56,742 nt of DNA from positions 1 through 56,742 of IMG/VR virus record IMGVR_UViG_3300042521_001523, one strand, 5' to 3'. Of the stretch, positions 5,326 through 47,755 are shown piece after piece (positions within the stretch are counted from its first letter, which is position 1; every line of letters begins with the position of its first letter). The notes below the pieces were generated by a model, which worked only from the letters and a program-made list of their open reading frames with translations, had not been told where the DNA came from and ran no database searches. The translations under genes were made by a program, and so were the position numbers. This DNA is from a virus.

Positions 5326-5340
5326 CCTATTCGGTCAGGG
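5320..5340. terminator. Hairpin shared by the two convergent operon ends
   Basis: CCCTGACC (5320-5327) pairs with GGTCAGGG (5333-5340) around a 5-base loop. The TGA of the plus-strand primase-helicase (5323-5325) and the TAG of the minus-strand giant gene (5327-5329) both lie within it. Being a palindrome it can fold in either transcript. There is no T-run on either side, so termination efficiency is uncertain. Confidence 0.55.
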
Positions 5341-8300
5341 CGTCCATCAGCTGGCGGATGTCGTCCTGAGCACCACGCGGAGCGGCGCGCAATGCCCGCT
5401 CACCAGCGCCACGCTGGGCTTCGCGGAGTGCCCGGACGGAGTTCGGCACGAAGCGGGTGATCTCCAGGGGCGTGCCCCGGGCACCGTCGTTCCAGTTGTT
5501 GACCGCCTCGACGATATCGCGCGCACCCTGGTTATCGCCACGCATGGTGGCCTTGATCCACGCCTGCCGGTAAGCCGCGACGACCTCCTTCTGGTAGTCG
5601 GACTCGCGCTGCGCGATGCGGATGACATCGTACTGGGTAGCCGCCCGCTCAGGGTAGAAGCCCAGCAAGCGCGTGATGACCGTGCCCGCATCCATCTCCG
5701 GGCTGACCACATAGCCCCGGCGATCCACCACAGCCCCAGAAGAGAGGTAGGCCGAGGTGTCACCCATGATGCGCAGGAAGGTGATCGGCGAGCTACGAGC
5801 CACATCCTCCAGGGTCTTGGTCGAGGAGAACGGGAAGGTGACGACATCACGCGCCGTGCTCGCCAGACCCGTGACGAAGCCCGTTGCCGGACCCAGGATA
5901 TCCTGGAGTTCGCGGGTAACGTTGGCCCCGGCCAGTGCCACGCCAGTGCCCGGGAGGAAGTTGCCTGCCGAGGTGCGAGAGGCCACGTCAGCCGGGACGA
6001 TCTGGTTAACCACGCCGCGCAGGAACACCGCCGACATACCGGGGAAGCTGCCTTCGATGTGGCGGATGATCTCAGCCCGGATGCTGCCCTGGCGGAAGCC
6101 GAGGCCCTGGGCCAACGTGTCGATCAGATCCTCCAAATCCTCAGCGAATGGCAAGCCGGTGGCACCAGCCAGGAGCCACATGGCGCCCAAGGTGCTGAGC
6201 TGCGCCGGGCGAGAGAGGCGCGCCAGCATCTGGATGACCGTGGTCGGGTAGGTCTTGTACATATAGAGGAAGGATTGGATGCCGTTCCTCCACGCGGGCG
6301 GGCGGTTCAGAACCGAGTACTCGCCAAGCGTCAGGTCGATAGACCGAACTGCTTCCTCACGCGCCCGATCAGATGCCTTCGCCTCGCTCAGGCCAGCAGC
6401 AATGGCCCGCTCGCGGAAGAGCCGGTAGGCAGCGAGGAAGGCAGCCCGGCGAGCAGCTTGTTCGGACAGATTAAAGGGCGCCATCCAAGTATCAGCGAAC
6501 CGGCGCATCCAGCGATTGGTCATGTACCCACGCGCCGTGGCGACGAGGGCGTTCGACTGCGCCGGGATGAGTTTACCCTCACGGATTTCGCGGGCGACAA
6601 CCCGGGCTTCCTCAGCGGTCAGGCCATAGCGACGCTGGAGTTCAGGGCTTTGCGCCACGCCGGGCTTCCACGTCTTGGCCAGCGTCGGATCGGTAGGCTT
6701 CGCCCCGGCGTCGTAGAAGTCAGCCCGGTTCATATCCATGCTGGTGACGCCGCGAGCGCCGATCTTGGCGAAGGCTTTGTGGTACTCCGACTGCACTTGC
6801 CCGAGACCGAAGCCGCCACCGAAGGCGTTCTTGGTGTTGTAGGACGCCATGTAGGGCATCCAGTTGGTGTAGGGGCTGAGCAGGTTCAGCGCGCCCTGCG
6901 CCACCGAGGCACCAAGCTGCATCATGCTGGTGTAGGCACGCACGCGAGAGGCGACCGGCCCCGCGCCGAAGTTGGACTCATCCACGAACTGGCTGCCATC
7001 AAGGTAGCTCAGCGTGCCCGCAGCTTGATTGTAGTACACCATGCTGCGACCGGCCCGGCCCTCCGGGTTGGTCGTGCGGAACATATACTCTGCACGATCC
7101 AGTTGCCGCTGTGCGTCCTTCTTCGCTTCGCCGGTCAGGCGGGCGACCTCATTACGCATGCGCGTGACGTTGGCCTCGTCGCCCTCCCACAGCGCACGAG
7201 AGCTGGGCAGGTTGAGGTTCATCAGCTCGCGCAGCGGCTGACGCGTCGTGGTCTTAGCGATGGTGGAGGCCCGCGACTCGATGTGACGCGAGAGCGCGTA
7301 GATACCAGTAGTGTTGTCGAAGCCCGGGGTCTGCGAGAACTCCAGGCGCGTACGCGCCGCGTTCTCCTGGCGGGTCAGGGTGGTGACCAGTTTCTCCATG
7401 ACCTTCGGCGTGGCATCGATGCCGAAGAGGCTCATACCGTACAGGAAGTCCTGGAGGTTCAGCTGCGGATCAGCAGCAACAGCATCCAGCACCCGCCCAG
7501 TCGTTGCCCGGAGCGTCACCTTGGTAGGGACAAACTCACCGTTCGCGTTGCGCGCCAGCAGCTCAAAGGTCTTACCCTTCAGCTCGGTGTTGAACTGCTG
7601 CGCCATGGTGTTAGCGCCGCCTTCATTGTCGAACTGCGAGTAGGCGAGCAGCGCCTGATGGCTATCCTTAACCTCCACCGGCTTGTCACCGACGAACGCC
7701 TGGAGGCGCATCTGGTAGTTGCCCTCGCGCAGCACAGGGATGTAGCCAGTAGCCACACCGCGTCGGGCGATACGCTCGCGCACACCGAGGTTGTAGGTGT
7801 TCAGGTAGAACTGCTTGACCTGATTTTGCAGGTCGAACTTCATCTCCTCAGGGAGATCCTTCCGGCGACCCTTCATCGCCACCATCTTCTCGATGAAGGC
7901 ATCTGCCGCAGACTGGCTGTCGAAGAACTTGGCGACCTCCGCGTTGCGATCAGTGCCCCGCCCGATGAAGGCGGCGTTCACGGCGGCAAGGAACTTGTCG
8001 GCCTCAGCCATGGAGGCCGGGTTCAGCACCTGGATGCCCGCCGAGTTGATCTCAGCGTCCTTGCTGTAGAGATCGCCGTACTTCCTCACGTAGGCCGTGA
8101 CGAACGCCTTGTCGGCGTTGTCGAGCTTGGCGTCCTTCATCAGCTGCCCAAGCTCGCGGTAAGATACGCGACGGTTAGCCGCGAGGCTGGCGTACTCAGC
8201 CTGGAGCATCTCAAATTCAACATCCATGACCGCCCGGCGGGCGCGCACGTAGAGTTCGTAGTCGGCGTCGGAGAAATCCTTGAAGCCAGCAAACTTGCGA

Positions 8301-11300
8301 GAGATGGTTGCGGGCTTGCCGTCGAGCCCTTCATACGAGTGGGTGTAGGAGAACCCGTTGCGAATCTGCTCCTTCGTCAGCAACCCCGCCTTGAAGAGCC
8401 GCTCAGCCTCAGCGTTGTTGCGCACGATGTTGCCATCGTCGCTGACAGAGAACAGCTTCTCGCCGCGCAGCAGCTTGTTGTCGAAGTTGGCGATGGCATA
8501 GCTACGGCCCGCGTACATGGCTTCCGAGATGCGCGCCTGGGTCTTTTCCGGGGCATCCATCAGGGGGCGCAGGTACTCGTTGAGGCGGTCCTTTGTCGCC
8601 ATGGTAATCTGGTTGGCCAGACCCATCAGCCCGTCGAACTCCATCAGACCCGGGTTCTCCAGAGCGCGGTAGTTGGCGAGGCTGAAGAACTTGGCCTTGA
8701 TGTCGTCGAAGGTGTTGGCGAAGTCCTTCCCCTTCTCGAAGATGAAGTTCAACGTCTCACCAAGGTTGGCTGGCCATGCGCCAACCTGTGCCTGGAAGAT
8801 CTGAGCCCTGGTGCTTGCCGAGAAGGCCGCAGTTGGGCTGAAGCGACCCGTACCCGCCAGACCAGTCTCGACCGCGTGCAGGCGCTGCGCGACTGCCTCG
8901 GCATTGAAAGTCACACCCTGGCTCCCGTCGCGGACGTAGCGGCGGGACTGGTCTAGGAAGTAGCGCGTGGCGCTGTCGCCGAAGCGCACACCAAGGCTGC
9001 TCAGGATGTTCTTAATAGCATTCCACACCCGCATGACTGTGTTGGTCGCCAGGGTGGCAGCGTAGTCGGAGAGGTACTCCTCGACCGCTTCAGCCTTCGA
9101 CAGGCCACGCACTTCCATAGCAGCGTCGGCTGCTGCCTGTGCCTGCGGGTCGGTGTCGTAGATACGCTCCATAAGCGCGTCGAAGCGGTTGCCCGGCATG
9201 ATGCCGCGCATACCGAAGTGACCAAAGACCTCGTGCGCCAGTACGAAGCGGAGGTGCTGCTCGTTGGCGATGCGGTCGGTGAAGATGATGACGTTGCCGT
9301 CGCCAAAGGAGTAACCAGCAGCCTCTGCCGTGGCGAAGTCACCCTGCGAGCGAGCAGCATTGGCGCGAGCGTAGAGCGCAGGGTTGGTGCGGCGCAGCTC
9401 TTCCTGATTAGCGACGACCGTGACGTTGGGCCGTGTGGCCAACTTCGACAGGAAGGTCTGCACCAGCATCCGGGCGCGGCCCGCACCCAGTGGGCGCACT
9501 GGCGACCCATCCACGTTGCGCGCACCGGTCAGGGTGTTCCAGCTGTTCAGCGACCAGCGGCCTGCCTCGGGCGTCGCCTTCGACACCACGGGGCGAATGC
9601 CAGTCTGTTCATCACGAGGTCCGAAGTTGAAGAACTCCGGGCCTTCCTTGATGTAGTCGCTGAGCTTACCCGTGCCGTAAGCCGGGTCGGTGCCTGCCTT
9701 CTTCAGACGCGTCCATGCCTGCGACGCCTGGAGGCGCATCGCAGCGGTGAGTGGTGCACCCGCGTTGACCTGTTCGATGATGGTGCCCAGCGTGAGGAAG
9801 TCATCATCGAGCTGGAGCTTGTCGCCAGCCTCCTTCCCAAGCCGCTGCTGCCGGTCAACGACCTCAGCCGCCTTATACTCGAAGGAGTCAAACCCAACCT
9901 CATTCTCCAGGTAGTCCTTGGCAAACGCCTTGGCTTCCTTGGAACCATCCTTCGACCAGCCAATCAGAGCAGCAATCGCCTCGATACGGCGACGCCCTTC
10001 CGTCAGGTTGGCTTCAGTCGCCATGGCCTGCGCCTCTTCCAGTTCATTCTGCGGAAGGGCTTCAGGCTCCGGGGTCGGTGCAGCCGCGCGCTGCTCAGCG
10101 GCGGGGGTTGCGGATGTTGCTACTGGCGCCGCCACCGGGGCGGCGGGTGCCTCTAAAGGGCGCGGAGGGGCTGCCTCCGCAGCCGGGGCAGGTGCGGGTG
10201 TCGGGGTTACTTGGGGTTGCGCTGCCGTCCCGCCTTGGACAGGGCGATTGCGACGGCCTGCTTGACCGCCGCCTGCTTGTTCTTTGGCCTGCTTGAGCCG
10301 ATCCTGCCCTTCGCCTGCCAGTCGTCCACCAACGTCTGTACGTTGGCCGACACCACCTTGTTCGACTTCCCTCGCTTTAGCGGCACTGGCACGACCCCTC
10401 TTCAGATTGGTGGGAGTTGCGGGAGCAGCAGGGGCTGCGGGCTGCACCATGGCAGGCGCGGCCAGCGCAGGTGCGATCTCAGCAACAGGTGCAGGCAGAG
10501 CCGTGGGGATCGCCGCTTCACCCGGAGCCGTCTCGGCAACAGCGGCAAGCTCAGCCCGGAACCGGTTTGCCTGCGCAGGCGCCAGTGCCTGGACACGCTC
10601 AAGGAAGCTGGCTTCGCTGTTTCCGTACCCTACCAGGACCTCATCCTGCTGCGCCTTGGTCAGCTGGTTGAACTGACGCACCACGGCCCGGCGGGCGTTG
10701 TCGGCGATGCGGTTGCGCCCGGTGGCCACGGCTTCCGCATCCAGAGCGAGCGGCTGGTTGGCCGTAGCCTGAGCCAGCGCCGCTTCGTAGTCCCGCTCAG
10801 CCGCAGTCGGGGCAGGCGGTTGGGCCGCACGCTGAGCCTCAGCCTGCCGAAGTTCCATCTGGCGACGGAGCGCCAGCAGCTGGTTACCAGCCTGGGTCTC
10901 GCCAAGCTGTGCGGCGGGTGCTGCCTGAGGAGCAGGACGGCGCAGTGCCTCCTGACCCGGAGCCGTAGCCATACCAGGGACAACGAAGCTCGCAGGCGTG
11001 CGAGGGGCCGGGCGCTGAGGCACCACGGGCGGGGGCATAACCGGTCCCGGCGTCGGGATGAAGCCAAACAGATCACTCTGTCCGGCAGGCACCGGAGTTC
11101 CAGGTGCCGGTGCCTCAGGAGGCAACGCTGCGGTTGGCGGTGAGACGCCACCAAACAGGTCCAGCTGCCCAGGCTGGGTAAGGAACGGAAGCGTCAGCTG
11201 TTCGCTAGGCTGGGCAGGGGCAACCGTAGGCTGCGTAGCAAACAGATCACCCTGCGCGCCGGGTGGCGGCGGAGCAACTCCAAACGAAGCACCCTCACCC

Positions 11301-12745
11301 AACGGGAACAGTTCGCCCTGAGTACCGGGACGCTGCGCTGGAAGCGCAACGCGCCCTTCCAGAATAGGCGAAGCGCCGAGGTCAGCACCGGGGAACAACT
11401 CGCCCTGCGCAGCCGGGGGTGTAGCAGGAGGGGTTGGCTGCTGACCCTGGTTTTGGAGGATGTCGCGCGGCTCACGCCCGGTCTCGATGAACCGACCCGC
11501 ACCACCGAAGCCCGCACCCAGCAGAGCACCAGCACCAGCGGCGATCAGCGCGTTCTCGCCGTACCGCTCAACGGCATAAGGAGCGAGGGCCTTCCAATCG
11601 TTAGCCGTCAGCAAGCTACGGAACTGCGGGTCGAAAAGCGCCTGCTCCACCACCGTCTGGAGCGCCTCGGTCCCGGCTTCTTCCAGGCCACTGCGAACCG
11701 CAGCACCGCCCACCGACTTGGCCCGCGCCAAGCCCGTGACTGCACGCTGGCTGGCTTCTTCGATGGCACCGGACAGGGTGCGCGAGATGCTGCCCGCCAC
11801 ACGGCCAGGAGCGATGGCATCGATGAGGCTGGTCGCCAGGGCGCCGCCAGCAATCTGCAACTGGATCTGCGAATTGGTCACGTCATAGGCGGGCTGTCCA
11901 TCCGGGGTCCGCGCATCACGCGCCGCCTCATAGAAGGTGTTCAGCTGCTGCGGGAAGCTGGTGGCAAGGAGACCGCCCACCGCACCAATGGTGCGTGCAC
12001 GCGCCAGGGTAGCAGCCGTAGCTGCACCCGCAGCAGCACCTGCCGGACCGGCGACAAGACCACCCACAGCGCCACCGGCCAGGGCCGCCGCACCACTCGT
12101 CAGGACCGAGGGTACACCCTCAATCGCAGCGTCCACGATGTTGTTGAAGAGGGAGTTGCTGCGCTGGATCAGCGCCGACCGCTGCTGGTCGAACTCATCC
12201 TGACCCGTGATAGCTTCACCAACCCCGGCAATAGCACCGCCTATCTGGGGCGCACCCAGCATCTCAATACCACGACCCACGCCGCCAACGAGACCACCAA
12301 CAGCAGCACGACCGCCACGCGCCAGCAGCTCACCCGTACCCCGGCGCTCAGAAAACCCAGCAAGGTAGTCGGTGAAGCCGCGCTGTGTCAGCGGCTGCCA
12401 GCCAGCGCCCGAAGGCGGGGCAGAGGGGGTAAGCGACTGCGACGCCTGGAGCGCCGAACCCACATCACGGATATCGAACGCCCGCCCACCAGCGAACATC
12501 TGGTTGGTGACCGGGTTGTAGTAGGCCGAGGCCGCAGGAGCCGCAGGAGCCGCAGGAGCCGCAGGGGGGATGAGGCCGGGCGTGCCAGCACCCACCCGAC
12601 CCAAGGTCTGCTCCCGGAACGCAGCCCAATCCGCCTGTGACGGAGCAAGGTTGCCAAGGCCAGATGCCTGCGTGACGCTTCGCGGCGCCCCGGAGATCTC
12701 CAGCCCAAGCGCAATCTGGTCCGGGGTGGCGAAGAAATCAGACAT
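5327..12745 (-). CDS. Giant polyvalent internal virion protein (2472 aa) with zincin-like domain and clamp-motif array
   Basis: This is the last and largest late gene. Residues about 140-420 hold several Gly/Ala-rich hydrophobic segments, compatible with membrane insertion during genome ejection. Residues about 430-600 are a Pro-rich linker carrying six QxxLF-like motifs (447-560). Residues 600-900 are another low-complexity linker. Around 1170 the sequence LAHEVFGHFG with a following VEEYLSDYA (1221-1229) looks like the HExxxH...E zincin motif of phage polyvalent proteins. The C-terminal 350 residues, with FLYMYKTYPTTVIQM near 2130, resemble the large-polyvalent-protein-associated terminal domains of podophages. 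It is probably packaged in the head and injected. Family assignment is by motif and context. Confidence 0.75.
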   Translation of the reverse strand: MSDFFATPDQIALGLEISGAPRSVTQASGLGNLAPSQADWAAFREQTLGRVGAGTPGLIPPAAPAAPAAPAASAYYNPVTNQMFAGGRAFDIRDVGSALQASQSLTPSAPPSGAGWQPLTQRGFTDYLAGFSERRGTGELLARGGRAAVGGLVGGVGRGIEMLGAPQIGGAIAGVGEAITGQDEFDQQRSALIQRSNSLFNNIVDAAIEGVPSVLTSGAAALAGGAVGGLVAGPAGAAAGAATAATLARARTIGAVGGLLATSFPQQLNTFYEAARDARTPDGQPAYDVTNSQIQLQIAGGALATSLIDAIAPGRVAGSISRTLSGAIEEASQRAVTGLARAKSVGGAAVRSGLEEAGTEALQTVVEQALFDPQFRSLLTANDWKALAPYAVERYGENALIAAGAGALLGAGFGGAGRFIETGREPRDILQNQGQQPTPPATPPAAQGELFPGADLGASPILEGRVALPAQRPGTQGELFPLGEGASFGVAPPPPGAQGDLFATQPTVAPAQPSEQLTLPFLTQPGQLDLFGGVSPPTAALPPEAPAPGTPVPAGQSDLFGFIPTPGPVMPPPVVPQRPAPRTPASFVVPGMATAPGQEALRRPAPQAAPAAQLGETQAGNQLLALRRQMELRQAEAQRAAQPPAPTAAERDYEAALAQATANQPLALDAEAVATGRNRIADNARRAVVRQFNQLTKAQQDEVLVGYGNSEASFLERVQALAPAQANRFRAELAAVAETAPGEAAIPTALPAPVAEIAPALAAPAMVQPAAPAAPATPTNLKRGRASAAKAREVEQGGVGQRTDVGGRLAGEGQDRLKQAKEQAGGGQAGRRNRPVQGGTAAQPQVTPTPAPAPAAEAAPPRPLEAPAAPVAAPVATSATPAAEQRAAAPTPEPEALPQNELEEAQAMATEANLTEGRRRIEAIAALIGWSKDGSKEAKAFAKDYLENEVGFDSFEYKAAEVVDRQQRLGKEAGDKLQLDDDFLTLGTIIEQVNAGAPLTAAMRLQASQAWTRLKKAGTDPAYGTGKLSDYIKEGPEFFNFGPRDEQTGIRPVVSKATPEAGRWSLNSWNTLTGARNVDGSPVRPLGAGRARMLVQTFLSKLATRPNVTVVANQEELRRTNPALYARANAARSQGDFATAEAAGYSFGDGNVIIFTDRIANEQHLRFVLAHEVFGHFGMRGIMPGNRFDALMERIYDTDPQAQAAADAAMEVRGLSKAEAVEEYLSDYAATLATNTVMRVWNAIKNILSSLGVRFGDSATRYFLDQSRRYVRDGSQGVTFNAEAVAQRLHAVETGLAGTGRFSPTAAFSASTRAQIFQAQVGAWPANLGETLNFIFEKGKDFANTFDDIKAKFFSLANYRALENPGLMEFDGLMGLANQITMATKDRLNEYLRPLMDAPEKTQARISEAMYAGRSYAIANFDNKLLRGEKLFSVSDDGNIVRNNAEAERLFKAGLLTKEQIRNGFSYTHSYEGLDGKPATISRKFAGFKDFSDADYELYVRARRAVMDVEFEMLQAEYASLAANRRVSYRELGQLMKDAKLDNADKAFVTAYVRKYGDLYSKDAEINSAGIQVLNPASMAEADKFLAAVNAAFIGRGTDRNAEVAKFFDSQSAADAFIEKMVAMKGRRKDLPEEMKFDLQNQVKQFYLNTYNLGVRERIARRGVATGYIPVLREGNYQMRLQAFVGDKPVEVKDSHQALLAYSQFDNEGGANTMAQQFNTELKGKTFELLARNANGEFVPTKVTLRATTGRVLDAVAADPQLNLQDFLYGMSLFGIDATPKVMEKLVTTLTRQENAARTRLEFSQTPGFDNTTGIYALSRHIESRASTIAKTTTRQPLRELMNLNLPSSRALWEGDEANVTRMRNEVARLTGEAKKDAQRQLDRAEYMFRTTNPEGRAGRSMVYYNQAAGTLSYLDGSQFVDESNFGAGPVASRVRAYTSMMQLGASVAQGALNLLSPYTNWMPYMASYNTKNAFGGGFGLGQVQSEYHKAFAKIGARGVTSMDMNRADFYDAGAKPTDPTLAKTWKPGVAQSPELQRRYGLTAEEARVVAREIREGKLIPAQSNALVATARGYMTNRWMRRFADTWMAPFNLSEQAARRAAFLAAYRLFRERAIAAGLSEAKASDRAREEAVRSIDLTLGEYSVLNRPPAWRNGIQSFLYMYKTYPTTVIQMLARLSRPAQLSTLGAMWLLAGATGLPFAEDLEDLIDTLAQGLGFRQGSIRAEIIRHIEGSFPGMSAVFLRGVVNQIVPADVASRTSAGNFLPGTGVALAGANVTRELQDILGPATGFVTGLASTARDVVTFPFSSTKTLEDVARSSPITFLRIMGDTSAYLSSGAVVDRRGYVVSPEMDAGTVITRLLGFYPERAATQYDVIRIAQRESDYQKEVVAAYRQAWIKATMRGDNQGARDIVEAVNNWNDGARGTPLEITRFVPNSVRALREAQRGAGERALRAAPRGAQDDIRQLMDALTE
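11066..11407 (-). repeat. Array of six beta-clamp-binding-like motifs encoded in the giant virion gene
   Basis: Read on the minus strand, residues 447-560 contain QGELF (447), QGELF (476), QGDLF (498), QLTLPF (516), QLDLF (527) and QSDLF (556), separated by Pro/Ala/Gly-rich linkers. QL(S/D)LF is the classical pentapeptide by which bacterial proteins bind the DnaN sliding clamp, and QLTLPF resembles the Hda-type hexapeptide QLSLPL. The peptides are seen directly; binding is inferred. Confidence 0.6.
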
Positions 12746-31818: not shown

Positions 31819-32748
31819 TTAGGCGAAGGTCACAACGGACTGGGCCAGAGCTTCCGGCTTCACCACCTTGTAGCCATAGACCTGAAGGCCACGGATGACG
31901 TTACCGAAAGTGCTCTCCGAGCGGATGGTCTCCATCTCCGTCATCTGCGACGCGAAGGTGAGGCCCATCTTGGTCCCAGCGACGATGTTGTACTTCCCAC
32001 CCGTGTCAACCTTCAGGTTGTGGCTGACATAGAGCGTGAAGCGATCCACCATGCCCAGGCGGCCATTGCGGATCATCGAGGTGCCGTCACCGACCAGCGA
32101 CGCATCCTTCAGCTCGGACTTCTTGATGAGGCCAGCCATGCGGGCCGGGATCACCAGGAAGCGACCGGCTTCCGGGCAGTTCGCCTCGTCGAGCACGGTA
32201 CCCAGATCGACGATCAGGTCCACCACCGAAGCGGTGCCGCCAGCGCCGTCCTTCGTCACCGTCAGCGGAGAAGCCGTGGTGCCGAGGTTGAACGCGCCGG
32301 AAACTGCACCCGCCGCCGTGCCCTTGTTCAGAGCAGCGATGTCGGGGAGCATGTCGGTCAGCACGCGCTGGTCGATCTTGATCTTCATCTGCTCGGACGC
32401 ATCCTTGGACCACATGTCCATCAGCTTGATGTCCGACTGAACGCGATCAATGTCATCCTCAACGCAGGCGAAGTACTCGCCCTTGTCGATGACCAGCTGG
32501 AGCTTCGGCTTGTCGGGGTTCTCCACGACAATGCCCTGACCCTTCACGTACTCACGGATCGTGATGTTCGGGGTCGTACGGATGTTCACCGTATCACCCT
32601 GGTTGCGGATCTCACCCTCATAGTCGGTGTTCGAGATCGCAGCCAGAACGGTGGCATCGTAGAAGTTTTCGATCAGCTTGCCGGACCAAATCTCGGGGAT
32701 GAAGTTACCCGAGTAGTTGGGGCGGCCAGGAGCAACAGGGTAGCCCAT
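31819..32748 (-). CDS. Major capsid protein (P22-coat-like HK97 fold)
   Basis: ATG 32748 (MGYPVAPGRPNYSGNFIPEI) has GGAGAG upstream, so I reject the start at 32760. The 309-residue protein has WSGKLIENFYDATVLAAISN, RTTPNITIREYVKGQGI, and KLQLVIDKGEYFACVEDDID, a series typical of P22-gp5-type and related HK97-fold coat proteins, and ends QVYGYKVVKPEALAQSVVTF. It follows the scaffold gene by 12 bases. It should form the icosahedral shell. No maturation protease is seen nearby, which agrees with a scaffold-based, P22/T7-like assembly. Confidence 0.88.
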   Translation of the reverse strand: MGYPVAPGRPNYSGNFIPEIWSGKLIENFYDATVLAAISNTDYEGEIRNQGDTVNIRTTPNITIREYVKGQGIVVENPDKPKLQLVIDKGEYFACVEDDIDRVQSDIKLMDMWSKDASEQMKIKIDQRVLTDMLPDIAALNKGTAAGAVSGAFNLGTTASPLTVTKDGAGGTASVVDLIVDLGTVLDEANCPEAGRFLVIPARMAGLIKKSELKDASLVGDGTSMIRNGRLGMVDRFTLYVSHNLKVDTGGKYNIVAGTKMGLTFASQMTEMETIRSESTFGNVIRGLQVYGYKVVKPEALAQSVVTFA

Positions 32749-32760
32749 GGTTCTCTCCAC

Positions 32761-33816: not shown

Positions 33817-34047
33817 CTACCCCTTATGGGGGTCCGCACGAAGTTTTGCGGCTACGTCGGGGGCATCCTGTACCAAGCGGTACAGCTCTGTCAACATTTG
33901 ACACCTACCCTGAGCGACCGCGACACTAGCGGGGGCTACAAAGGGTAGTTGCTCTAGTTCGCGCTGCCGCCATTCGGTCAGCCAGGGCAGGATCATGTTA
34001 CTTGCCCGGGCAAGTGCCATCACGACCTCGGGCGGGGGCCGGGTCAT
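33817..34047 (-). CDS. Small protein between portal and scaffold (76 aa)
   Basis: The ATG overlaps the portal stop (TAATG). The product is helical: RPPPEVVMALARASNMILPW, ELEQLPFVAPASVAVAQGRC, LTELYRLVQDAPDVAAKLRA. Comparable short helical proteins are found between portal and scaffold genes in podophages and are unnamed. It may help portal or scaffold assembly. No motif is recognised. Confidence 0.65.
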   Translation of the reverse strand: MTRPPPEVVMALARASNMILPWLTEWRQRELEQLPFVAPASVAVAQGRCQMLTELYRLVQDAPDVAAKLRADPHKG

Positions 34048-36089
34048 TAGGCTTGGCCCGTCATCTGGTTGGCGACCACGTTCATCTGCGAGCCTGGACC
34101 GCCGCCCTCAGGCGAAGGCGCCGGGGCCTGACCCTGCGGAGCCGCTAGCTGGGCCTGCTGCTGGGTACGGATCATGTAGTCGAGCTTCTCGCGCGACGGG
34201 ATAATCTCATCGACCGGCATCTGGAGGCCCTTGGCCACCTCACGCAGCAGCGCCGCACGGCCATCGATGCCGACGATCTGCATATCCACTGGGTTGGCGG
34301 TCGCGTTGAGGAACTCGACGCGCCGAACGTTGACCGTCTCGCGCACAGCGAGGTTGATCGCGCCACGCGGGATGATCTCGGCGTCACCCTTGATCGCCTC
34401 ATCCGGGTCATAGCGCATGTTATAAACAAACTGACGCTTAACGACCGGCTTGATAACGTCGTTATCGATGTGCATGACAACCTGTCGGATGCCCTTGCCC
34501 GCCGAGCCCATCAGCATCGATAGACCAGAAGCAGTGCGGCCCGCGCCGCGCACATCCACGTCGCCGTAGATGTAGGCCGGGATGCCCGAGTGGTCGTCGG
34601 CGAGGCGGGAAAACCGCTCGTAGACCGCCATCAGCGTGCTGGCATTGTCGCTCGGCTGGTTGAAGCGCACCGCCGGGGCCGACGACCCGAGCGGATCATT
34701 CAGCGTCTGCCAGATCTTCCAGGGGTACATCTGGGTGATGTCTTCGTTCGGCGGGATGCGGTCGAGATTCACCTCAACCTGCGGGCCGGACGCCACCGCC
34801 ATGTTGTTCACCAGAGCCCGCGCCGCCGCGTTGCAGACGTTCTGCAAGTCCTCGATGATCTCGGGGATGCCACGGCCCCAGAAGGCACCCGGCGTCTTGA
34901 TGAAGGAGGTCTTGGCGTAGGGCTTCTCGCCCAGCGGGTCGTAGTTTAGCACCGCCTTGATGATGTAGTTACCCACCATCCAGACGTTCGCGTCGTACTC
35001 ACGCATCTCATCCGGCACCTCGGTAGGGTCCATACCCCACTCGCGGAGCATCTTGCCGCTGACCTTGCCCCAGAACTCCAGGGCATCGAAGAGGTCGGTC
35101 GGGCGCATCTCCGTGAAGTACTTGCGCTCCTCCTCTTCGCGCTGCATCTCGATGGTCTCCGAGACCCAGCTCTGGCCCGGACCAGCCTCGATGGCCTTGC
35201 GAATGGCCGCATCGTCGTAGCCCGGCACGCCGATCAGATCGGCCATGGCCGAACGGCTAAGGCGATGGTGCTCGAACAGGTAGCCGTCGTTGAGGCGCGT
35301 GATGCCCGGCTCGGGGTAGATGTTGAACGGGCTAACCCGCTCGAACTCAGGCGCCAGCCGCTCGCTAGCCTCGACCGTGGTGCGGCCATCTGGCCCCTTT
35401 ACCCAGCCCAGGTGACGCTGACGCCGGACAATCGGCCCCTTCACAAAGGCGCAGGGGAAGGTCACCAGATCGGTGATGAACTCGTTGAACGCATCAGCCC
35501 ATCCACCCTGAGCGAACTGGTCGTCGATGCGGATCTTCATCCCATCCACCCGGGCCTGGGCAGCCTGGAGGATTTTGAAACGGTACTCCTGAGCGACGAT
35601 CTCCTTCATCTCCAGCATCTGAGCCGGGCTGGGGGCTTGCCCGGTCTGCTGGATCATCTCAACGACCCGCTCGGCAAAGCCTTGCTGGATCTCTCCTGTG
35701 TGGTCGGGCGAGAGGTCAGGGATAGGCGTGGGCTGCATATCCCACGGGGGGAAGCCAGTATCGAGGAGGATGTCGCGCAGCCAGCTCTCAGCCGCCCGGC
35801 ACTTCACCTCGGTGAGCATCATATAAACTTCGGAGCCACCCTGCTTGCGAATGGCTTGCAGCTTGTCGGCCTCGTACTCGCCATTGCGCTGGCGCATGGC
35901 CTTCAGCATGAGGTCGTTGATGGGGTCCTTGGCGATGCGCGCGGCATCCCAGCACTCGCGCATGTAGGCCGACAGGCCAAGGATCAGGTCACTATTCTGC
36001 CGAGCCTGAACCTCCGCATCCAGCCGTTCCTTCTCGGCCCGCTCGATCTCGGAGTTACTGACGACGCGGAGAATGGTGAGGCCCGGCAT
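34047..36089 (-). CDS. Portal protein (680 aa)
   Basis: The protein has the podophage portal layout: SAYMRECWDAARIAKDPIND with LKAMRQRNGEYEADKLQAIR near the start, VYMMLTEVKCRAAESWLRDI, a core with GYLFEHHRLSRSAMADLIGV, KTSFIKTPGAFWGRGIPEII (about residue 390), and a C-terminal region GRTASGLSMLMGSAGKGIRQ that is highly typical. It should form the dodecameric vertex through which terminase packages DNA and to which the connector binds. Its length is on the long side (T7 gp8 is 536). The C-terminus is Gln/Pro-rich. Confidence 0.88.
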   Translation of the reverse strand: MPGLTILRVVSNSEIERAEKERLDAEVQARQNSDLILGLSAYMRECWDAARIAKDPINDLMLKAMRQRNGEYEADKLQAIRKQGGSEVYMMLTEVKCRAAESWLRDILLDTGFPPWDMQPTPIPDLSPDHTGEIQQGFAERVVEMIQQTGQAPSPAQMLEMKEIVAQEYRFKILQAAQARVDGMKIRIDDQFAQGGWADAFNEFITDLVTFPCAFVKGPIVRRQRHLGWVKGPDGRTTVEASERLAPEFERVSPFNIYPEPGITRLNDGYLFEHHRLSRSAMADLIGVPGYDDAAIRKAIEAGPGQSWVSETIEMQREEEERKYFTEMRPTDLFDALEFWGKVSGKMLREWGMDPTEVPDEMREYDANVWMVGNYIIKAVLNYDPLGEKPYAKTSFIKTPGAFWGRGIPEIIEDLQNVCNAAARALVNNMAVASGPQVEVNLDRIPPNEDITQMYPWKIWQTLNDPLGSSAPAVRFNQPSDNASTLMAVYERFSRLADDHSGIPAYIYGDVDVRGAGRTASGLSMLMGSAGKGIRQVVMHIDNDVIKPVVKRQFVYNMRYDPDEAIKGDAEIIPRGAINLAVRETVNVRRVEFLNATANPVDMQIVGIDGRAALLREVAKGLQMPVDEIIPSREKLDYMIRTQQQAQLAAPQGQAPAPSPEGGGPGSQMNVVANQMTGQA

Positions 36090-42304: not shown

Positions 42305-43303
42305 ATGACCCGCAAGACCAACGTCAGCGCCATGCCCAGCAAGGTGCGAGAACTCAACCTCAGCAACCCCATCATCAACGAGCTGCTCCAGATGCACACT
42401 TACTGCCGCCCTGCTGGCAGTGAGACCGAGGCGCTGTTCGTCAAGCGTTACCTCGACAGCATCCCCGACATGCGCAGTGACGCCAAGGGCAACCGCTACA
42501 TCAACATCCCCAACAGGGATGGATCGCTGTCACGTATCCTGTGGTCCTCCCATACCGACACTGTGCACGCCAAGGGCGGCAGGCAGCGTATCACCTACGG
42601 TGGCGGTATGCTCTCCCTCTCACCCAACGCTGACAGCTCGTGCCTTGGTGCTGACTGCACGGCAGGTGTGTGGCTGATGCGCCAGATGATCCTCCGCGAG
42701 GTCCCTGGCCTCTACATCTTCCATGCTGCTGAGGAGATCGGTGGCATCGGTTCTCACCACATCGCCGTTGAGACACCCGAGCTGCTCGATGGCATTGACT
42801 ACGCTATTGCGCTTGATCGGCGTGGCACCACCAGTGTCATCACCCATCAGGGTGCACGCTGTGCGTCAGATGCGTTTGGTAGGGCGCTGGCTGATCAGCT
42901 CAGCACCAAGGGCCACACGTTCCAGCTCGACTCCGGTGGCACCTTCACCGATACGGCCAACTACACCGACATCGTGCCTGAGTGCACCAACCTCAGCGTT
43001 GGGTACTACAACGCTCACCAAGCCACAGAGTACCTCGATGTGCCCTTCCTGGTGCATCTGCTGGAGCGGCTGTGTCAGGTCGATCCGGTCACCCTGCCTG
43101 TGGTGCGCAAGGCTGGCGACAGTGACTTCCCCTGGGGCAACTCGGCGTCGTGGCGCAGTGGTGGCACTGCCTCCTACGCTTCGTCCAAGGGCAGCACCCT
43201 GGAGGATCTTGTGTACGACTACCCCAAGGCCGCAGCGCAGCTGCTGGAGGACCTTGGCATCTCTGCTGATGACTTCCAGCAGTACCTGTACGGCGTTCAC
43301 TGA
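42305..43303 (+). CDS. M20/M42/M28-like zinc peptidase (332 aa)
   Basis: ATG 42305 follows AGGAGATACCT. All co-catalytic zinc ligands of the M20/M28/M42 superfamily can be placed: SSHTDTVH (His83, Asp85), LGADCTAG (Asp117), HAAEEIGGIGS (catalytic Glu143, ligand Glu144), ALDRRG (Asp171) and YYNAHQATEYLD (His238). It should be a di-zinc aminopeptidase or dipeptidase/deacylase. Such an enzyme is unusual in phages. It has no signal peptide, so it acts in the cytoplasm. It is upstream of the MoxR/VWA module with several small genes between. Substrate is unknown. Confidence 0.8.
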   Translation: MTRKTNVSAMPSKVRELNLSNPIINELLQMHTYCRPAGSETEALFVKRYLDSIPDMRSDAKGNRYINIPNRDGSLSRILWSSHTDTVHAKGGRQRITYGGGMLSLSPNADSSCLGADCTAGVWLMRQMILREVPGLYIFHAAEEIGGIGSHHIAVETPELLDGIDYAIALDRRGTTSVITHQGARCASDAFGRALADQLSTKGHTFQLDSGGTFTDTANYTDIVPECTNLSVGYYNAHQATEYLDVPFLVHLLERLCQVDPVTLPVVRKAGDSDFPWGNSASWRSGGTASYASSKGSTLEDLVYDYPKAAAQLLEDLGISADDFQQYLYGVH

Positions 43304-43946: not shown

Positions 43947-43970
43947 ATGCAATGCGTCCGACTCTTTTAA
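43947..43970 (+). other. Seven-codon micro-ORF (MQCVRLF) overlapping the MoxR start
   Basis: The operon's usual leader GAGGTGAAC is followed by ATG 43947, which opens only MQCVRLF before TAA. The MoxR ATG at 43952 is inside it in another frame. The micro-ORF may be a leader that sets MoxR translation by termination-reinitiation, or the ribosome may simply use the second ATG. It is a prediction from start-codon layout alone. Confidence 0.3.
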
Positions 43971-44944
43971 AAGATACACTCGCTGCGCTGATCCGTGTGG
44001 GCCGCACGGTCTGCGTTGAGGGGGCACCCGGTGGCGGCAAGACCACCATCGCCCGAGAGGTCGCCTCTGATCTAGGTCGGGGCTACATCGAGATGCACCT
44101 GCCCACCATGCTGGTGGAGGACTTCGGCATCCCGGAGATCAGTGGCTCCACGCTGAGCTACAAGCTGCCTGACTGGTACCCTGCGCAGGGCAGCCGCCAC
44201 GATACCCCTGAGGGTGGGTTGCTGTGCTTCGACGACCGCAATCAAGCCGGTGCGGACATCCAGAAGGTTCTGGCCAACATCTGTCAGGCAAGGACGCTGC
44301 ACGGCGTACCCATGGCTAACGGCTGGAGCGTCATCTCCACCGGCAACAGGCAGAGTGACCGGGCAGGGGCTAACCGTGTGCTGGGCCACCTCCGCAACCG
44401 TGAGACGGTGCTGGAGATGGAGACGCACCTCGACGACAGCTCGGCCTGGATGATTGCCAACGGTGTACGGCCTGAGGTGGTGAGCTTCCTGCGCTTCCGG
44501 CCTGGGTTGCTCCATGACTACGACCCGCAGCGTGATCAGAACCCCACGCCACGGTCCTGGGTGGAGGGTGTCTCGGCTGTGCTGGGCGTGGTGCCTGCTG
44601 ATGCTGAGTTCGAGTGCTTCAAGGGCGCTGTGGGTGAGGGCGCTGCGGCTGAGTTCGTGGGGTTCCTGCGCATCTTCCGCAAGCTGCCCAACCCTGACGC
44701 CATCCTGCTCGACCCCAAGGGGTCGGTGGTGCCGACCGATCCGGCGACGCTCTACGCCCTGTCTGGTGCCTTGTCTGCCCGTGCAAGTTCGGGCAACCTT
44801 GACCGTGTTGTGGCGTACTGTGAGCGGATGCCGCCCGAGTTCAGCGTGCTGACCGTCTCCATCGCAGCGCGCCGTGACCCGTCACTGGCCAGCACCCAGG
44901 CATTCACGACCTGGGCCGTAAAGCACCACGAAGTGCTGTTCTGA
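43952..44944 (+). CDS. MoxR-type AAA+ ATPase (330 aa)
   Basis: The protein has Walker A EGAPGGGKT (23-31), the MoxR-like insert GYIEMHLPTMLVEDFGIPEI, Walker B GGLLCFDD (88-95), sensor I VISTGNRQSDRAG (127-139), and a lid domain. The Walker B ends DD instead of the usual DE, which could weaken ATP hydrolysis. MoxR ATPases work as chaperones for VWA-domain partners or metal chelatase-like complexes. The next two genes encode such a partner set, so a three-protein machine is likely. ATG 43952 is in frame; an overlapping micro-ORF is noted separately. Confidence 0.85.
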   Translation: MRPTLLKDTLAALIRVGRTVCVEGAPGGGKTTIAREVASDLGRGYIEMHLPTMLVEDFGIPEISGSTLSYKLPDWYPAQGSRHDTPEGGLLCFDDRNQAGADIQKVLANICQARTLHGVPMANGWSVISTGNRQSDRAGANRVLGHLRNRETVLEMETHLDDSSAWMIANGVRPEVVSFLRFRPGLLHDYDPQRDQNPTPRSWVEGVSAVLGVVPADAEFECFKGAVGEGAAAEFVGFLRIFRKLPNPDAILLDPKGSVVPTDPATLYALSGALSARASSGNLDRVVAYCERMPPEFSVLTVSIAARRDPSLASTQAFTTWAVKHHEVLF

Positions 44945-44957
44945 GGAGGATAGAACA

Positions 44958-45809
44958 ATGCAGCTCAACGACCGCGCCCTGCTGGTGCAGCTCTCCGTCT
45001 CTCAGTGGACGGCCCGCAAGTACGACAAGCGCGTCTCGCAGCAGGCGACGACGCTCTACCATGCCAGTGCTGAGGCAGGGCGCTTCAACAAGTCCCTGCT
45101 GCCGCTCAACGACTACCTTGAGCGGGTGCACGCCAAGAGCAACGCCATCCGGCAGGACTTCTACTCCAACACCCTGCCCTGGGCGATGGAGGGGGCGCAG
45201 CTGCTGCCTACCTCCAACTACCTCAGCTTCATCACGTCCTTCCGCAAGGCCAAGGCTGAGTGGGAGGCCCTGGTGGCTGACTTCGTGTACAACTACCCGG
45301 CACTGAAGGTGCAGGCTGCCCGGCTGCTGGGTGGCATGTACTCGGACAGTGACTACCCGGCGGATGACGAGATCGCCAACCGGTTTAGGATGGATATCGC
45401 CATCTTCCCGGTGCCTACCAACGACTTCCGGGTGGAGCTGAGTGGGTCGGAGATGTCCCGCATCCAGCAGGACATCACGGCGCGGCTGGTGCAGGCTCAC
45501 ACCCTGGCGACCAAGGATGTCTGGCAGCGGCTGTATGAGCGGGTGGAGACCATCTCCCGCCAGTGCAGCAACCCCAAGGGGCGCATCTACGACAGCATGT
45601 TGGAGCACGCACGGGAACTGTGTGACCTGCTGCCTCGCCTCAACATCGGCGATGACCCCAACCTTGAGAACATGCGGCAGGAGGTGGAGGGCAAGCTGGC
45701 ATCCCTCAGCACCGACGCCATCCGCAATGATCCCACGGTGCGCCAGAGTGCAGCGGACGACGCTGCTGCCATCATGGATAAGATGCGCGCCTTCATGGGA
45801 GGGCTGTGA
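44958..45809 (+). CDS. MoxR-VWA partner protein, DUF3150-like (283 aa)
   Basis: It follows the MoxR stop with GAGGAGGATAGAACA. The protein is helical throughout: LVQLSVSQWTARKYDKRVSQ, FNKSLLPLNDYLERVHAKSN, SFRKAKAEWEALVADFVYNY, then FPVPTNDFRVELSGSEMSRI and a C-terminal helical bundle. This composition, plus location between MoxR and the VWA metallopeptidase, matches the DUF3150 type. No enzymatic motif is present; an adaptor or scaffold role in the ATPase-VWA complex is inferred. Confidence 0.65.
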   Translation: MQLNDRALLVQLSVSQWTARKYDKRVSQQATTLYHASAEAGRFNKSLLPLNDYLERVHAKSNAIRQDFYSNTLPWAMEGAQLLPTSNYLSFITSFRKAKAEWEALVADFVYNYPALKVQAARLLGGMYSDSDYPADDEIANRFRMDIAIFPVPTNDFRVELSGSEMSRIQQDITARLVQAHTLATKDVWQRLYERVETISRQCSNPKGRIYDSMLEHARELCDLLPRLNIGDDPNLENMRQEVEGKLASLSTDAIRNDPTVRQSAADDAAAIMDKMRAFMGGL

Positions 45810-45810
45810 C

Positions 45811-46923
45811 ATGGACCTCATGAAACGCTTGGCCAAGGCCAAGACCAACCTGATCCTTCAGCACCCCTTCATCGGGACCGTGGCACTCAACATGCCCATG
45901 GTGCTGGACGAGCGTGTCCCCACAGCGGCGACCGATGGGAAGACCGTGTGGTACAACCCGCACTTCCTCAAGGATCTGACTGACGAGGAGGTCACCTTCC
46001 TCGTGGCGCACGAGTGCTTCCACCCCATGCTGGAGCATATGTACCGCCTCAAGGGCCGCGACCACGGCAAGTGGAACAAGGCGGCTGACTACGTAATCAA
46101 CCAGCTCCTGGTGGATGAGCGCATCGGCAAGTTCATCAAGGGCGGCTGCCTCGACAGGACGCTGTACGACGCAGGCAAGGGTACGTCTGAGGGTATCTAC
46201 GCCATCCTGCCGGACAGCGACGGCAGGGACGGTGCCAAGGGTGATGGCCCTGGCGGTATCGGCAACGATCTGCTGGAGCCGGAAGGCTCCCCTGCTGAGC
46301 AGGCACAGGCTCAGGCCGAGTGGCGAGTGAAGGTCGCCCAGGCAGCGCAGGCTGCCAAGATGATGGGCAAGATGTCAGCCAACATGCAGCGCCTCGTCGA
46401 TGAGGTGTTGCAACCCAAGGTGCGCTGGCAGGATGTGCTGCGTAGGTTCATGCACCGGGCCAAGACCAGCACCCGGAGCTGGGCACGACCCAACCGACGC
46501 TTCCTGGCGCAGGGTCTCTATCTGCCGAGCGTATCCGGTGAGGCGCTGGGTGAGGTGGTGGTAGCGGTGGACTGCTCAGGCTCCATCAGCCCCCGTGTGG
46601 TGGCTGAGTTCGCTGCGGAGATCAGGGCGATCCATGAGGACACCAACCCGGTCATGCTGCACATCGTCTACTTCGACAGTGAGGTGTGCCACTACGACCG
46701 CTACGCACCCACTGACACGGTGACCATCACGGCACGTGGCGGTGGAGGCACGGCCTTCTCGCCGATCTTCAAACACGTTGCAGACAACTCGGTGGCACCG
46801 GTCGCCTGTGTGGTGCTGACCGATCTGTACTGCGACGACTTCGGCCCGGCACCGGATTACCCGGTGATGTGGGTAACCAACGGTGCGACCAAGGCACCCT
46901 GGGGTGAGGTGGTCAAGCTGTGA
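45811..46923 (+). CDS. Metallopeptidase-VWA fusion protein, DUF2201-like (370 aa)
   Basis: ATG 45811 lies right behind the partner gene stop. An N-terminal zincin-like domain has VAHECFHPMLEH (HExxH at 67-71) with a later ADYVINQLL (Asp93) as a possible third ligand. The C-terminal domain has the MIDAS-like VAVDCSGSIS (Asp254, Ser256, Ser258) and a VWA fold (VMLHIVYFDSEV, ITARGGGGTAF, CVVLTDLYCDDFG). This is the DUF2201 layout. With MoxR and the helical partner it forms a three-gene module. Substrate is unknown: host protein remodelling or degradation is possible. Confidence 0.85.
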   Translation: MDLMKRLAKAKTNLILQHPFIGTVALNMPMVLDERVPTAATDGKTVWYNPHFLKDLTDEEVTFLVAHECFHPMLEHMYRLKGRDHGKWNKAADYVINQLLVDERIGKFIKGGCLDRTLYDAGKGTSEGIYAILPDSDGRDGAKGDGPGGIGNDLLEPEGSPAEQAQAQAEWRVKVAQAAQAAKMMGKMSANMQRLVDEVLQPKVRWQDVLRRFMHRAKTSTRSWARPNRRFLAQGLYLPSVSGEALGEVVVAVDCSGSISPRVVAEFAAEIRAIHEDTNPVMLHIVYFDSEVCHYDRYAPTDTVTITARGGGGTAFSPIFKHVADNSVAPVACVVLTDLYCDDFGPAPDYPVMWVTNGATKAPWGEVVKL

Positions 46924-47111
46924 GCGAGGGCACGCTCATCACCATCGGCCTCACCCTCTGCTTCTGGGTGGGCTGGCTGGAGTGGAGGCTGCGTCGTGCT
47001 GATGAGAAGTGCGACCAGCTCTGCCACCTTCTCGTACACATCGCCTACGGTCGGCTCACCATCCGGGTGGACCGTGACCGCAAGGTGCACATAACACCAA
47101 CTGGGAGATGA
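46920..47111 (+). CDS. Small membrane-anchored protein (63 aa)
   Basis: GTG 46920 overlaps the VWA stop (GTGA). Residues 5-21 (TLITIGLTLCFWVGWLE) form one membrane span, followed by RLRRADEKCDQLCHLLVH and a short basic beta tail. It is coupled to the VWA gene, so it could anchor or regulate the MoxR/VWA complex at the membrane, but that is only a guess. No family is recognised. Confidence 0.65.
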   Translation: MSEGTLITIGLTLCFWVGWLEWRLRRADEKCDQLCHLLVHIAYGRLTIRVDRDRKVHITPTGR

Positions 47112-47113
47112 AC

Positions 47114-47755
47114 ATGGGTACCGTTCGTATTGGCGTTGACCTCAAGCAGCACATCATCCGCATGGCGACGCTCACCTACTTCAAGCGCATCGAGATTGCG
47201 GAGCGTAGCCTCAAGTTCCCGTTCGACGGGCCGACGCTCTACTCCATGCTGTTCGGTGAGTGGGAGAAGCAGATGGAGGCGCTACCCAATGGGTTCCTTC
47301 CTCTGCGCCCTGCCATCCAGATCCGCAATGTAGGCGGCGTCGTGCCTCCCCCGTTCACGTTCTCCTGCGGCGTGAAGCGGTTCCCGTTCAACCTGCCATC
47401 CGCTGGGCGGGACTTCGTGCTGAGCATGTCGTTCACTGAGTACGCCTCTGTCACCCTGCTACCGTCCGAGCGGTGGGAGCCGACCATCAAGGCAGTGCAC
47501 GACTGGAAGCAGCAGCACGACAACATCATCGCTGAGCGCGATGCGTTCATCATGGGGGTGAACAGGGTGCTCGATGCCCACGCTACGCTGGGTGCTGCGG
47601 TCAAGACATGGCCCGCACTGTGGGAGCTGGTTCCTGAGAACGTGAAGGAGCGCCAGCGCAGCACCACCAAGCCTGAGAAAAAGAAGGAGGCTGCACCCTT
47701 GGATATCGATGTTGACCGCATGACGGCGGTTGTTGCGATGAGCAAGATCCTGTGA
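47114..47755 (+). CDS. Hypothetical protein, Nmad5-like pattern (213 aa)
   Basis: ATG 47114 lies after GGGAGATGAAC. The sequence has an N-terminal helix (RMATLTYFKRIEIAERSLKF), then ALPNGFLPLRPAIQIRNVGG, a beta section, and NRVLDAHATLGAAVKTWPAL with WELVPENV. The 'lp.gflp....i.i.vgg ... v...l....tl..l...wpel..lvP' pattern reminds me of the proposed nucleotide-modification-associated domain 5. That family's activity is predicted only. The tail is basic (KPEKKKEAAP). Treat the assignment as tentative. Confidence 0.5.
   Translation: MGTVRIGVDLKQHIIRMATLTYFKRIEIAERSLKFPFDGPTLYSMLFGEWEKQMEALPNGFLPLRPAIQIRNVGGVVPPPFTFSCGVKRFPFNLPSAGRDFVLSMSFTEYASVTLLPSERWEPTIKAVHDWKQQHDNIIAERDAFIMGVNRVLDAHATLGAAVKTWPALWELVPENVKERQRSTTKPEKKKEAAPLDIDVDRMTAVVAMSKIL

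What the first reader, a model, noticed from the sequence alone, without database searches (positions are those of the whole stretch)
43952..46923. MoxR ATPase / helical partner / metallopeptidase-VWA module in a phage
Three adjoining genes encode a MoxR AAA+ ATPase, a DUF3150-like helical protein and a HExxH plus MIDAS VWA protein. MoxR-VWA pairs are known in bacteria as chaperone- or chelatase-like machines. Here a protease domain is fused to the VWA partner, which implies an ATP-driven peptidase or remodeller. The Walker B ends in DD. A small one-span membrane protein is translationally coupled to the end. The whole unit may act on a host target early in infection.
Basis: partly seen in the sequence, partly recalled or inferred. 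Interest (0 to 1): 0.75.

Follow-up and report, generated by a model that had tools for sequence, protein, structure and literature searches.

The report
Phage AAA+ ATPase–metallopeptidase-VWA three-gene module
Three neighbouring phage genes encode the likely parts of an ATP-driven protein-remodelling and protein-cutting machine; two parts were already known from other phages, but this three-part form is a fixed part of an uncultured phage lineage and is also carried by conjugative plasmids of bacteria, so it probably serves mobile DNA in general rather than building the virus particle.

Summary
A MoxR-like (AAA_5) ATPase at 43952-44944, a helical protein at 44958-45809, and a DUF2201_N zincin metallopeptidase fused to a DUF2201 VWA domain at 45811-46923 form a tight cluster on the + strand. 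HExxHxxxxH and the MIDAS motif are intact, and Walker B reads DD. 'DUF3150-like' is right only through intermediates and predicted fold. The small membrane protein (46920-47111) is not part of the module; a Nmad5-like gene (47108-47755) is more often conserved beside it.

The ATPase + metallopeptidase-VWA pair is already known: phage N4 gp24/gp25 (Schitoviridae core genes) and a pair reported in jumbo phages in 2021. What looks undescribed is the three-gene form. It is present in 42 of 42 DNA-polymerase-anchored relatives, lies with replication genes rather than virion genes, and recurs with permuted gene order in bacteria, on conjugative plasmids next to PRTRC and type IV secretion genes.

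Phages with related virion genes lack it, and N4, which has no detectable virion kinship, carries the pair. My best reading is a NorQD/midasin-like remodelling ATPase with its own peptidase, acting on protein complexes during replication or establishment of the mobile element. The substrate is unknown. New variant of a known kind.

The parts
43952..44944 (+). MoxR-like AAA+ ATPase (AAA_5 / phrog_1297), 330 aa; Shine-Dalgarno-like AGAGGTG upstream
   Evidence: AAA_5 1.8e-6; phrog_1297 'ATPase' 2.9e-62; profile's best PDB relative is midasin, 1.1e-11; sequence read directly
44021..44044 (+). Walker A motif GAPGGGKT
   Evidence: translation; Walker A pattern in 126 of 126 complete viral homologues
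44228..44236 (+). Walker B end FDD (Asp in place of the usual catalytic Glu)
   Evidence: FDDR in 126 of 126 complete viral homologues; DD also in 28 bacterial/plasmid homologues that carry the middle gene, DE in the 25 scored pairs without it
44958..45809 (+). Middle helical subunit, 283 aa, divergent DUF3150-type protein
   Evidence: tblastn homologues on plasmids down to 2e-59; DUF3150 reached through relatives and predicted fold; no solved fold matches
45811..46923 (+). DUF2201_N zincin metallopeptidase fused to a DUF2201 VWA domain, 370 aa
   Evidence: Pfam 6e-48 and 1.9e-25; fold matches to selecase MJ1213 and to VWA domains
46009..46038 (+). HExxHxxxxH zinc-site motif HECFHPMLEH
   Evidence: in 156 of 156 viral homologues and 65 of 80 bacterial ones; a downstream Asp (residue 93) is invariant
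46570..46584 (+). MIDAS motif DCSGS (with T314 and D338 of the protein downstream)
   Evidence: invariant in 55 aligned viral relatives; DxSxS in all 80 bacterial homologues

Best explanation
The three genes encode a three-subunit protein-remodelling and proteolytic machine of mobile elements. The AAA+ ATPase is inferred to form a ring that engages the VWA domain of the third protein, as shown for NorQ-NorD and midasin. A substrate bound at the MIDAS metal is then strained or pulled by ATP turnover, and the fused zinc peptidase domain cuts it or, in lineages that lost the catalytic Glu, only holds it. The DUF3150-type middle protein is the third subunit, most likely an adaptor that selects or positions the substrate. 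In this phage the machine is probably expressed with the replication genes. I think its substrate is a protein complex that limits replication or establishment of the element's DNA (its own or the host's DNA-bound complex), not a virion protein. Shown by sequence, profile or model: domain identities, motif conservation, linkage, core status, distribution. Inferred: ring and complex formation, peptidase activity, adaptor role, substrate class.
For: Domains and motifs. Fixed linkage: trio in order in 149 of 159 IMG/VR loci and, independently, in 42 of 42 DNA-polymerase-anchored loci with enough upstream sequence (ATPase cut off by the contig end in 2). In bacteria 49 of 80 loci hold all three, with permuted order in Bacteroidota and Pseudovibrio, so linkage outlives gene order. 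Same strand as DNA polymerase, exonuclease and primase; portal and other virion genes are on the other strand. Conjugative plasmids carry the trio between PRTRC and type IV secretion genes and make no virion. Phages with related capsid and portal (CRP-2; HTVC115P by portal) lack it, while N4, with no detectable virion kinship, has the pair. Mechanism template: NorQD finger-in-pore with the VWA C-terminus contacting the AAA ring (PMC13036017); here an aromatic-Gly tail (mostly FGEVV) ends 156 of 156 viral VWA proteins.
Against: No experiment. Proximity to replication genes is not a function; in a jumbo phage the pair lies near structural genes. Walker B DD might mean slow ATP turnover. Distance-matrix correlation between the three proteins (0.64-0.78) is about as high as with the neighbouring fourth gene (0.61-0.74), so it does not show contact. 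The middle protein has no solved relative. Some relatives lost the peptidase Glu, so cutting is not the universal task.
Confidence: 0.42

Rival explanations
1. Virion-assembly chaperone and processing protease: the ATPase-VWA pair assembles and trims structural proteins, as proposed for jumbo phages in 2021 by analogy with the Acidianus two-tailed virus pair.
For: Published proposal (PMC7824862); in Salmonella phage PHA46 the pair lies next to genes annotated virion structural.
Against: Same module on conjugative plasmids without virions; related-virion phages CRP-2 and HTVC115P lack it; in the window it is on the opposite strand from virion genes; N4 gp24/25 are middle transcripts and not among the virion proteins listed for the N4-like phages RPP1/RLP1 (PMC4193335).
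Confidence: 0.2
2. Host takeover or counter-defence: the machine unfolds and cuts a host factor (defence protein, transcription or replication factor) during infection or after plasmid entry.
For: Found on phages and conjugative plasmids, both of which meet host defences on entry; PRTRC and type IV secretion neighbours on plasmids; grouped by position with replication rather than virion genes.
Against: Counter-defence genes are usually patchy, but this set is present in 42 of 42 relatives and strongly conserved (67-74% mean column identity); no defence-library hit beyond weak generic AAA matches.
Confidence: 0.22
3. Defence or superinfection-exclusion system of the MoxR-vWA ternary (conflict) kind carried by the phage against competitors.
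For: MoxR-vWA-plus-third-protein ternary systems are known conflict systems (PMC7159879); bacterial relatives lie near integrases, RES-domain and conjugation genes.
Against: Third component has no VMAP, iSTAND or FtsH hit; no variable effector domain was seen; core status in the phage lineage.
Confidence: 0.08
4. A different reading of the chemistry, compatible with any of the roles above: the peptidase domain is not the working part, and the machine is a pure MIDAS-dependent remodeller (chelatase-like or midasin-like) with zinc only structural.
For: 15 of 80 bacterial relatives and a Variovorax plasmid lack an intact HExxHxxxxH while MIDAS is always kept.
Against: Catalytic Glu kept in 156 of 156 viral relatives, including N4 and a Thermus phage.
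Confidence: 0.2

Closest known systems
Phage N4 gp24/gp25 (Schitoviridae core genes; phrog_1297/phrog_1314)
   Same: Homologous ATPase and metallopeptidase-VWA genes, adjacent, transcribed in the middle phase; tblastn of N4 gp24/gp25 finds the window proteins at 3e-30 and 1e-35.
   Different: No middle DUF3150-type gene; Walker B is DE; the rest of the phage is unrelated (no RNAP1/2, vRNAP, portal, capsid or terminase match).
MoxR + metallopeptidase-vWA pair of group 2.2 jumbo phages (Iyer et al. 2021, PMC7824862)
   Same: Same domain fusion and ATPase partner.
   Different: Described as a pair and assigned to virion assembly; no middle-subunit homologue detected in the jumbo loci checked.
MoxR-vWA ternary conflict systems (VMAP, iSTAND, FtsH types; PMC7159879)
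   Same: MoxR ATPase, VWA protein and a third linked protein.
   Different: Third component and VWA architecture differ; no effector domains; no VMAP or iSTAND domain found by Pfam.
NorQD, CbbQO, RavA-ViaA, midasin (Rea1/MDN1)
   Same: Works like: AAA+ ring with MIDAS-VWA partner; the ATPase profile's best PDB hit is midasin; the VWA model matches the MDN1 MIDAS domain among many VWA folds.
   Different: To my knowledge none of these carries a fused zinc peptidase or a DUF3150 partner.
DUF3150 / VWA-like / MoxR trio on Burkholderiales plasmids and in cyanophage MinM2
   Same: Same three genes; MinM2 is annotated MoxR, DUF3150, VWA-like; plasmid trios at about 30-40% identity.
   Different: On plasmids the neighbours are PRTRC and type IV secretion genes; MinM2 has small genes inserted between.

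Membership tests
DUF2201_N metallopeptidase + DUF2201 VWA (PF13203 + PF09967) | Both Pfam domains over their curated cut-offs in one protein | tested here: met
   164.2 and 89.8 bits against cut-offs 23.2 and 26.4
DUF2201_N metallopeptidase + DUF2201 VWA (PF13203 + PF09967) | Intact HExxH and MIDAS DxSxS...T...D | tested here: met
   H67 E68 H71 and D254 S256 S258 T314 D338 present and invariant in 55 rows
MoxR AAA+ family | AAA_3/MoxR Pfam or NCBIfam model match | tested here: not met
   AAA_5 (1.8e-6) is over its cut-off, AAA_3 is not listed; no MoxR NCBIfam match. Called MoxR-like because of the VWA partner and the names of homologues in the records
MoxR AAA+ family | Helix-2 insert and hexameric ring | not tested
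MoxR AAA+ family | Linked VWA-domain partner gene | tested here: met
DUF3150 (PF11348) | Window protein over the curated cut-off (24.9 bits) | tested here: not met
   no match at E<=10
DUF3150 (PF11348) | Homology to proteins that do pass the cut-off, or same fold | tested here: met
   Tannerella homologue in the same trio passes with 35.4 bits and is found by the middle-protein profile at 1.7e-72; best viral fold match is a DUF3150 protein, 2e-16
Schitoviridae (N4-like phages) | vRNAP, RNAP1/RNAP2, and related portal, capsid and terminase | tested here: not met
   tblastn of these N4 proteins on the window gives no match at E<=0.01; only gp24 and gp25 match
MoxR-vWA ternary conflict systems | VMAP, iSTAND or FtsH third component with effector domains on the VWA protein | tested here: not met
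   no such domain by Pfam, NCBIfam or PADLOC on the three proteins
NorQD/CbbQO/midasin-type remodelling machine | Physical AAA-VWA complex with ATP-dependent remodelling | not testable with these tools
   needs co-purification, cryo-EM or complex prediction

The most novel reading that the evidence does not exclude
The ATPase, DUF3150-type and metallopeptidase-VWA trio is a previously undescribed general machine of mobile DNA, shared by phages and conjugative plasmids of several phyla. It would use ATP to extract, and its own peptidase to destroy, proteins that block the entry, replication or establishment of the element's DNA.
Probability: 0.3. Interest if true: 0.72.

Novelty: new variant of a known kind. 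Interest (0 to 1): 0.46.

Why it matters
N4 gp24/gp25 have been listed as core genes for years with no stated function; many GenBank records call the second one an 'HNH endonuclease', which does not fit its DUF2201_N and VWA domains. Showing that the same pair, with a third subunit, is a fixed replication-region gene set of an unrelated phage lineage and sits on conjugative plasmids narrows the possible functions: it weighs against a virion-specific role and gives a testable common role. Phage N4 in E. coli K-12 is a ready laboratory model for the pair, and a Cupriavidus plasmid is one for the trio.

Tried and rejected
Direct DUF3150 hit on the window: none. DNA-level relatives in cultured phages: none. 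Mirror-tree test of interaction: not decisive, correlations similar to a neighbouring gene. The membrane protein as part of the module: rejected, found in 5 loci only. The 498-aa gene in jumbo phage 30-3 as a hidden middle subunit: rejected. Middle gene in N4, Thermus, Vibrio D466, pSYSA, jumbo and Desulfobacterota loci: none found by profile. Mycobacterium phage Dylan gp94 as a middle-subunit homologue: weak fold match only (1.9e-3), no sequence support. Sigma-70-type promoter scan: nothing. Literature: no paper in the library names DUF3150; the CRISPRi-ART paper's main text has no N4 gp24/gp25 result.

Full report
The observation. The ATPase starts at ATG 43952 behind AGAGGTG, the middle gene at 44958 behind GGAGG, and the third gene at 45811, one base after the middle gene's stop. 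Pfam gives AAA_5 (1.8e-6) for the first, and DUF2201_N metallopeptidase (6e-48) plus DUF2201 VWA (1.9e-25) for the third; PHROGs gives phrog_1297 and phrog_1314. Walker A, the DD form of Walker B, HExxHxxxxH and the MIDAS residues are read directly from the sequence and are invariant in aligned relatives.

The middle protein. No Pfam, PHROG or NCBIfam family is recognised directly, and DUF3150 does not hit the window. Relatives close the gap: a Cupriavidus plasmid homologue in the same gene position matches DUF3150 at 1.1e-4, just under the cut-off; a Tannerella homologue in a rearranged trio passes the cut-off (found by our profile); and the predicted fold (pLDDT 82) matches a viral DUF3150 protein at 2e-16. 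No solved structure matches. It is a divergent DUF3150-type protein. The literature library has no paper that names DUF3150.

Linkage. In 159 IMG/VR loci chosen by similarity to the middle or third protein, 149 hold ATPase, middle and third gene in that order. Because that choice is biased, I repeated the test with DNA polymerase as the anchor: of 42 loci with at least 7 kb upstream, all 42 hold the middle and third genes, and 40 the ATPase, which is cut off by the contig end in the other two. The module is therefore a core gene set of this lineage. The one-span protein at 46920-47111 was found in only 5 loci. The next gene, 47108-47755, was found in 37 of the 42 and is related to the Nmad5 protein YuA gp15 (profile comparison 1.2e-10; YuA gp15 is Nmad5 at 4e-56). 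It evolves much faster than the trio and was not found in bacterial loci.

Distribution. Phage N4 gp24/gp25 and over 700 other phage records hold the third protein's homologue, but only MinM2-like cyanophages among cultured phages hold a detectable middle protein. Plasmids of Burkholderiales, Rhodovastum and others hold the full trio. Among 80 genome loci, 49 hold all three, 26 only the pair (mostly Desulfobacterota), and the order is changed in Bacteroidota and Pseudovibrio. In Burkholderiales the trio lies between a PRTRC cassette and VirB-type secretion genes; in Acidobacteria PRTRC ThiF is again within roughly 10 kb for two genomes. Other bacterial neighbours include integrase, single-strand binding protein, DnaB, RadC, conjugative-transposon and RES-domain genes. 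The module is most often seen on mobile DNA.

Which role? Three roles were weighed. Virion assembly (the published proposal for jumbo phages) fits poorly: plasmids have no virions; phages that share the capsid (CRP-2, 2e-28) or portal (CRP-2, HTVC115P) with the window lack the genes; N4, with no detectable relation in portal, capsid, terminase or RNA polymerases, has the pair; in the window the trio is with replication genes and opposite to virion genes; and N4 gp24/25 are middle transcripts, not among the virion proteins listed for RPP1/RLP1. Counter-defence fits the range of elements but not the core status. A role in replication or establishment of the element's DNA fits both phages and plasmids and is my choice, at moderate confidence; the substrate is unknown.

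How it may work. NorQ-NorD shows the general mode: a finger of the VWA protein enters the ATPase pore and its C-terminus binds the ring, so ATP turnover twists and stretches the partner (PMC13036017). Midasin, the best solved relative of our ATPase profile, also brings a MIDAS domain to its ring (PMC13036017). Here an aromatic-Gly tail, mostly FGEVV, ends 156 of 156 viral VWA proteins, and the VWA carries a zincin domain whose nearest solved fold is the minimal peptidase selecase MJ1213. In the viral branch the catalytic Glu is always kept; in 15 of 80 bacterial relatives, mostly pairs without the middle gene, the zinc motif is broken while MIDAS stays. The remodelling function is thus probably the constant part and peptide cutting the added part. 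DD in Walker B occurs only in homologues that carry the middle gene (28 of 43 scored; 0 of 25 without), which hints at tuned ATP turnover; this is a correlation within related sequences, not a test.

Comparison and novelty. The pair is known, the N4 core status is known, and MoxR-vWA ternary conflict systems with other third components are known. The three-gene form with the DUF3150-type subunit, its core status in an uncultured podovirus-like lineage, and its link to PRTRC and conjugation genes appear undescribed in the searchable literature, so I class it as a new variant of a known kind. Limits: no experiment; genes were called by ORF and homology; the host of the window phage is unknown; the literature library lacks most subscription journals.

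Noticed in passing
window 47108-47755 (+): Conserved fourth gene beside the trio, related to the Nmad5 DNA-modification-associated protein YuA gp15; fast evolving, not found in the bacterial trios.
   Followed up: partly
window 5327-12745 (-): 2472-aa protein at the end of the late genes, placed like the N4 virion RNA polymerase but without detectable similarity to it; only its C-terminus matches phrog_11358.
   Followed up: partly
window 42305-43303 (+): A second peptidase-like gene (phrog_4191; weak M28/PepT-like) about 650 bases upstream of the trio, not found next to the trio in nearly all relatives.
   Followed up: no
public records, phrog_1314: Many phage records and PHROGs label this metallopeptidase-VWA family 'HNH endonuclease'; the domains found here (DUF2201_N, VWA) do not support that name.
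   Followed up: yes
L205, L215, L218, L224, L225, L228, L230 and similar Desulfobacterota loci: ATPase/VWA pairs without the middle gene in which the catalytic Glu of HExxH is replaced (HTVMH, HLVMH, HVILH) while MIDAS is kept: a likely pseudo-peptidase branch.
   Followed up: partly
L340:32933-35525 (Mycobacterium phage Dylan gp94-gp95): A classical AAA ATPase followed by a 275-aa protein whose predicted fold weakly resembles the middle subunit (1.9e-3), near ParB-like and Ku genes; no sequence support.
   Followed up: partly
window 34047-36089 (-) and about 31819-32760 (-): Portal and capsid related to HMO-2011-type marine podoviruses (CRP-2, HTVC115P) and, for portal and DNA polymerase, to Rhizobium phages RHph_TM; of the three checked only RHph_TM3_14A carries the ATPase/VWA pair.
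   Followed up: yes
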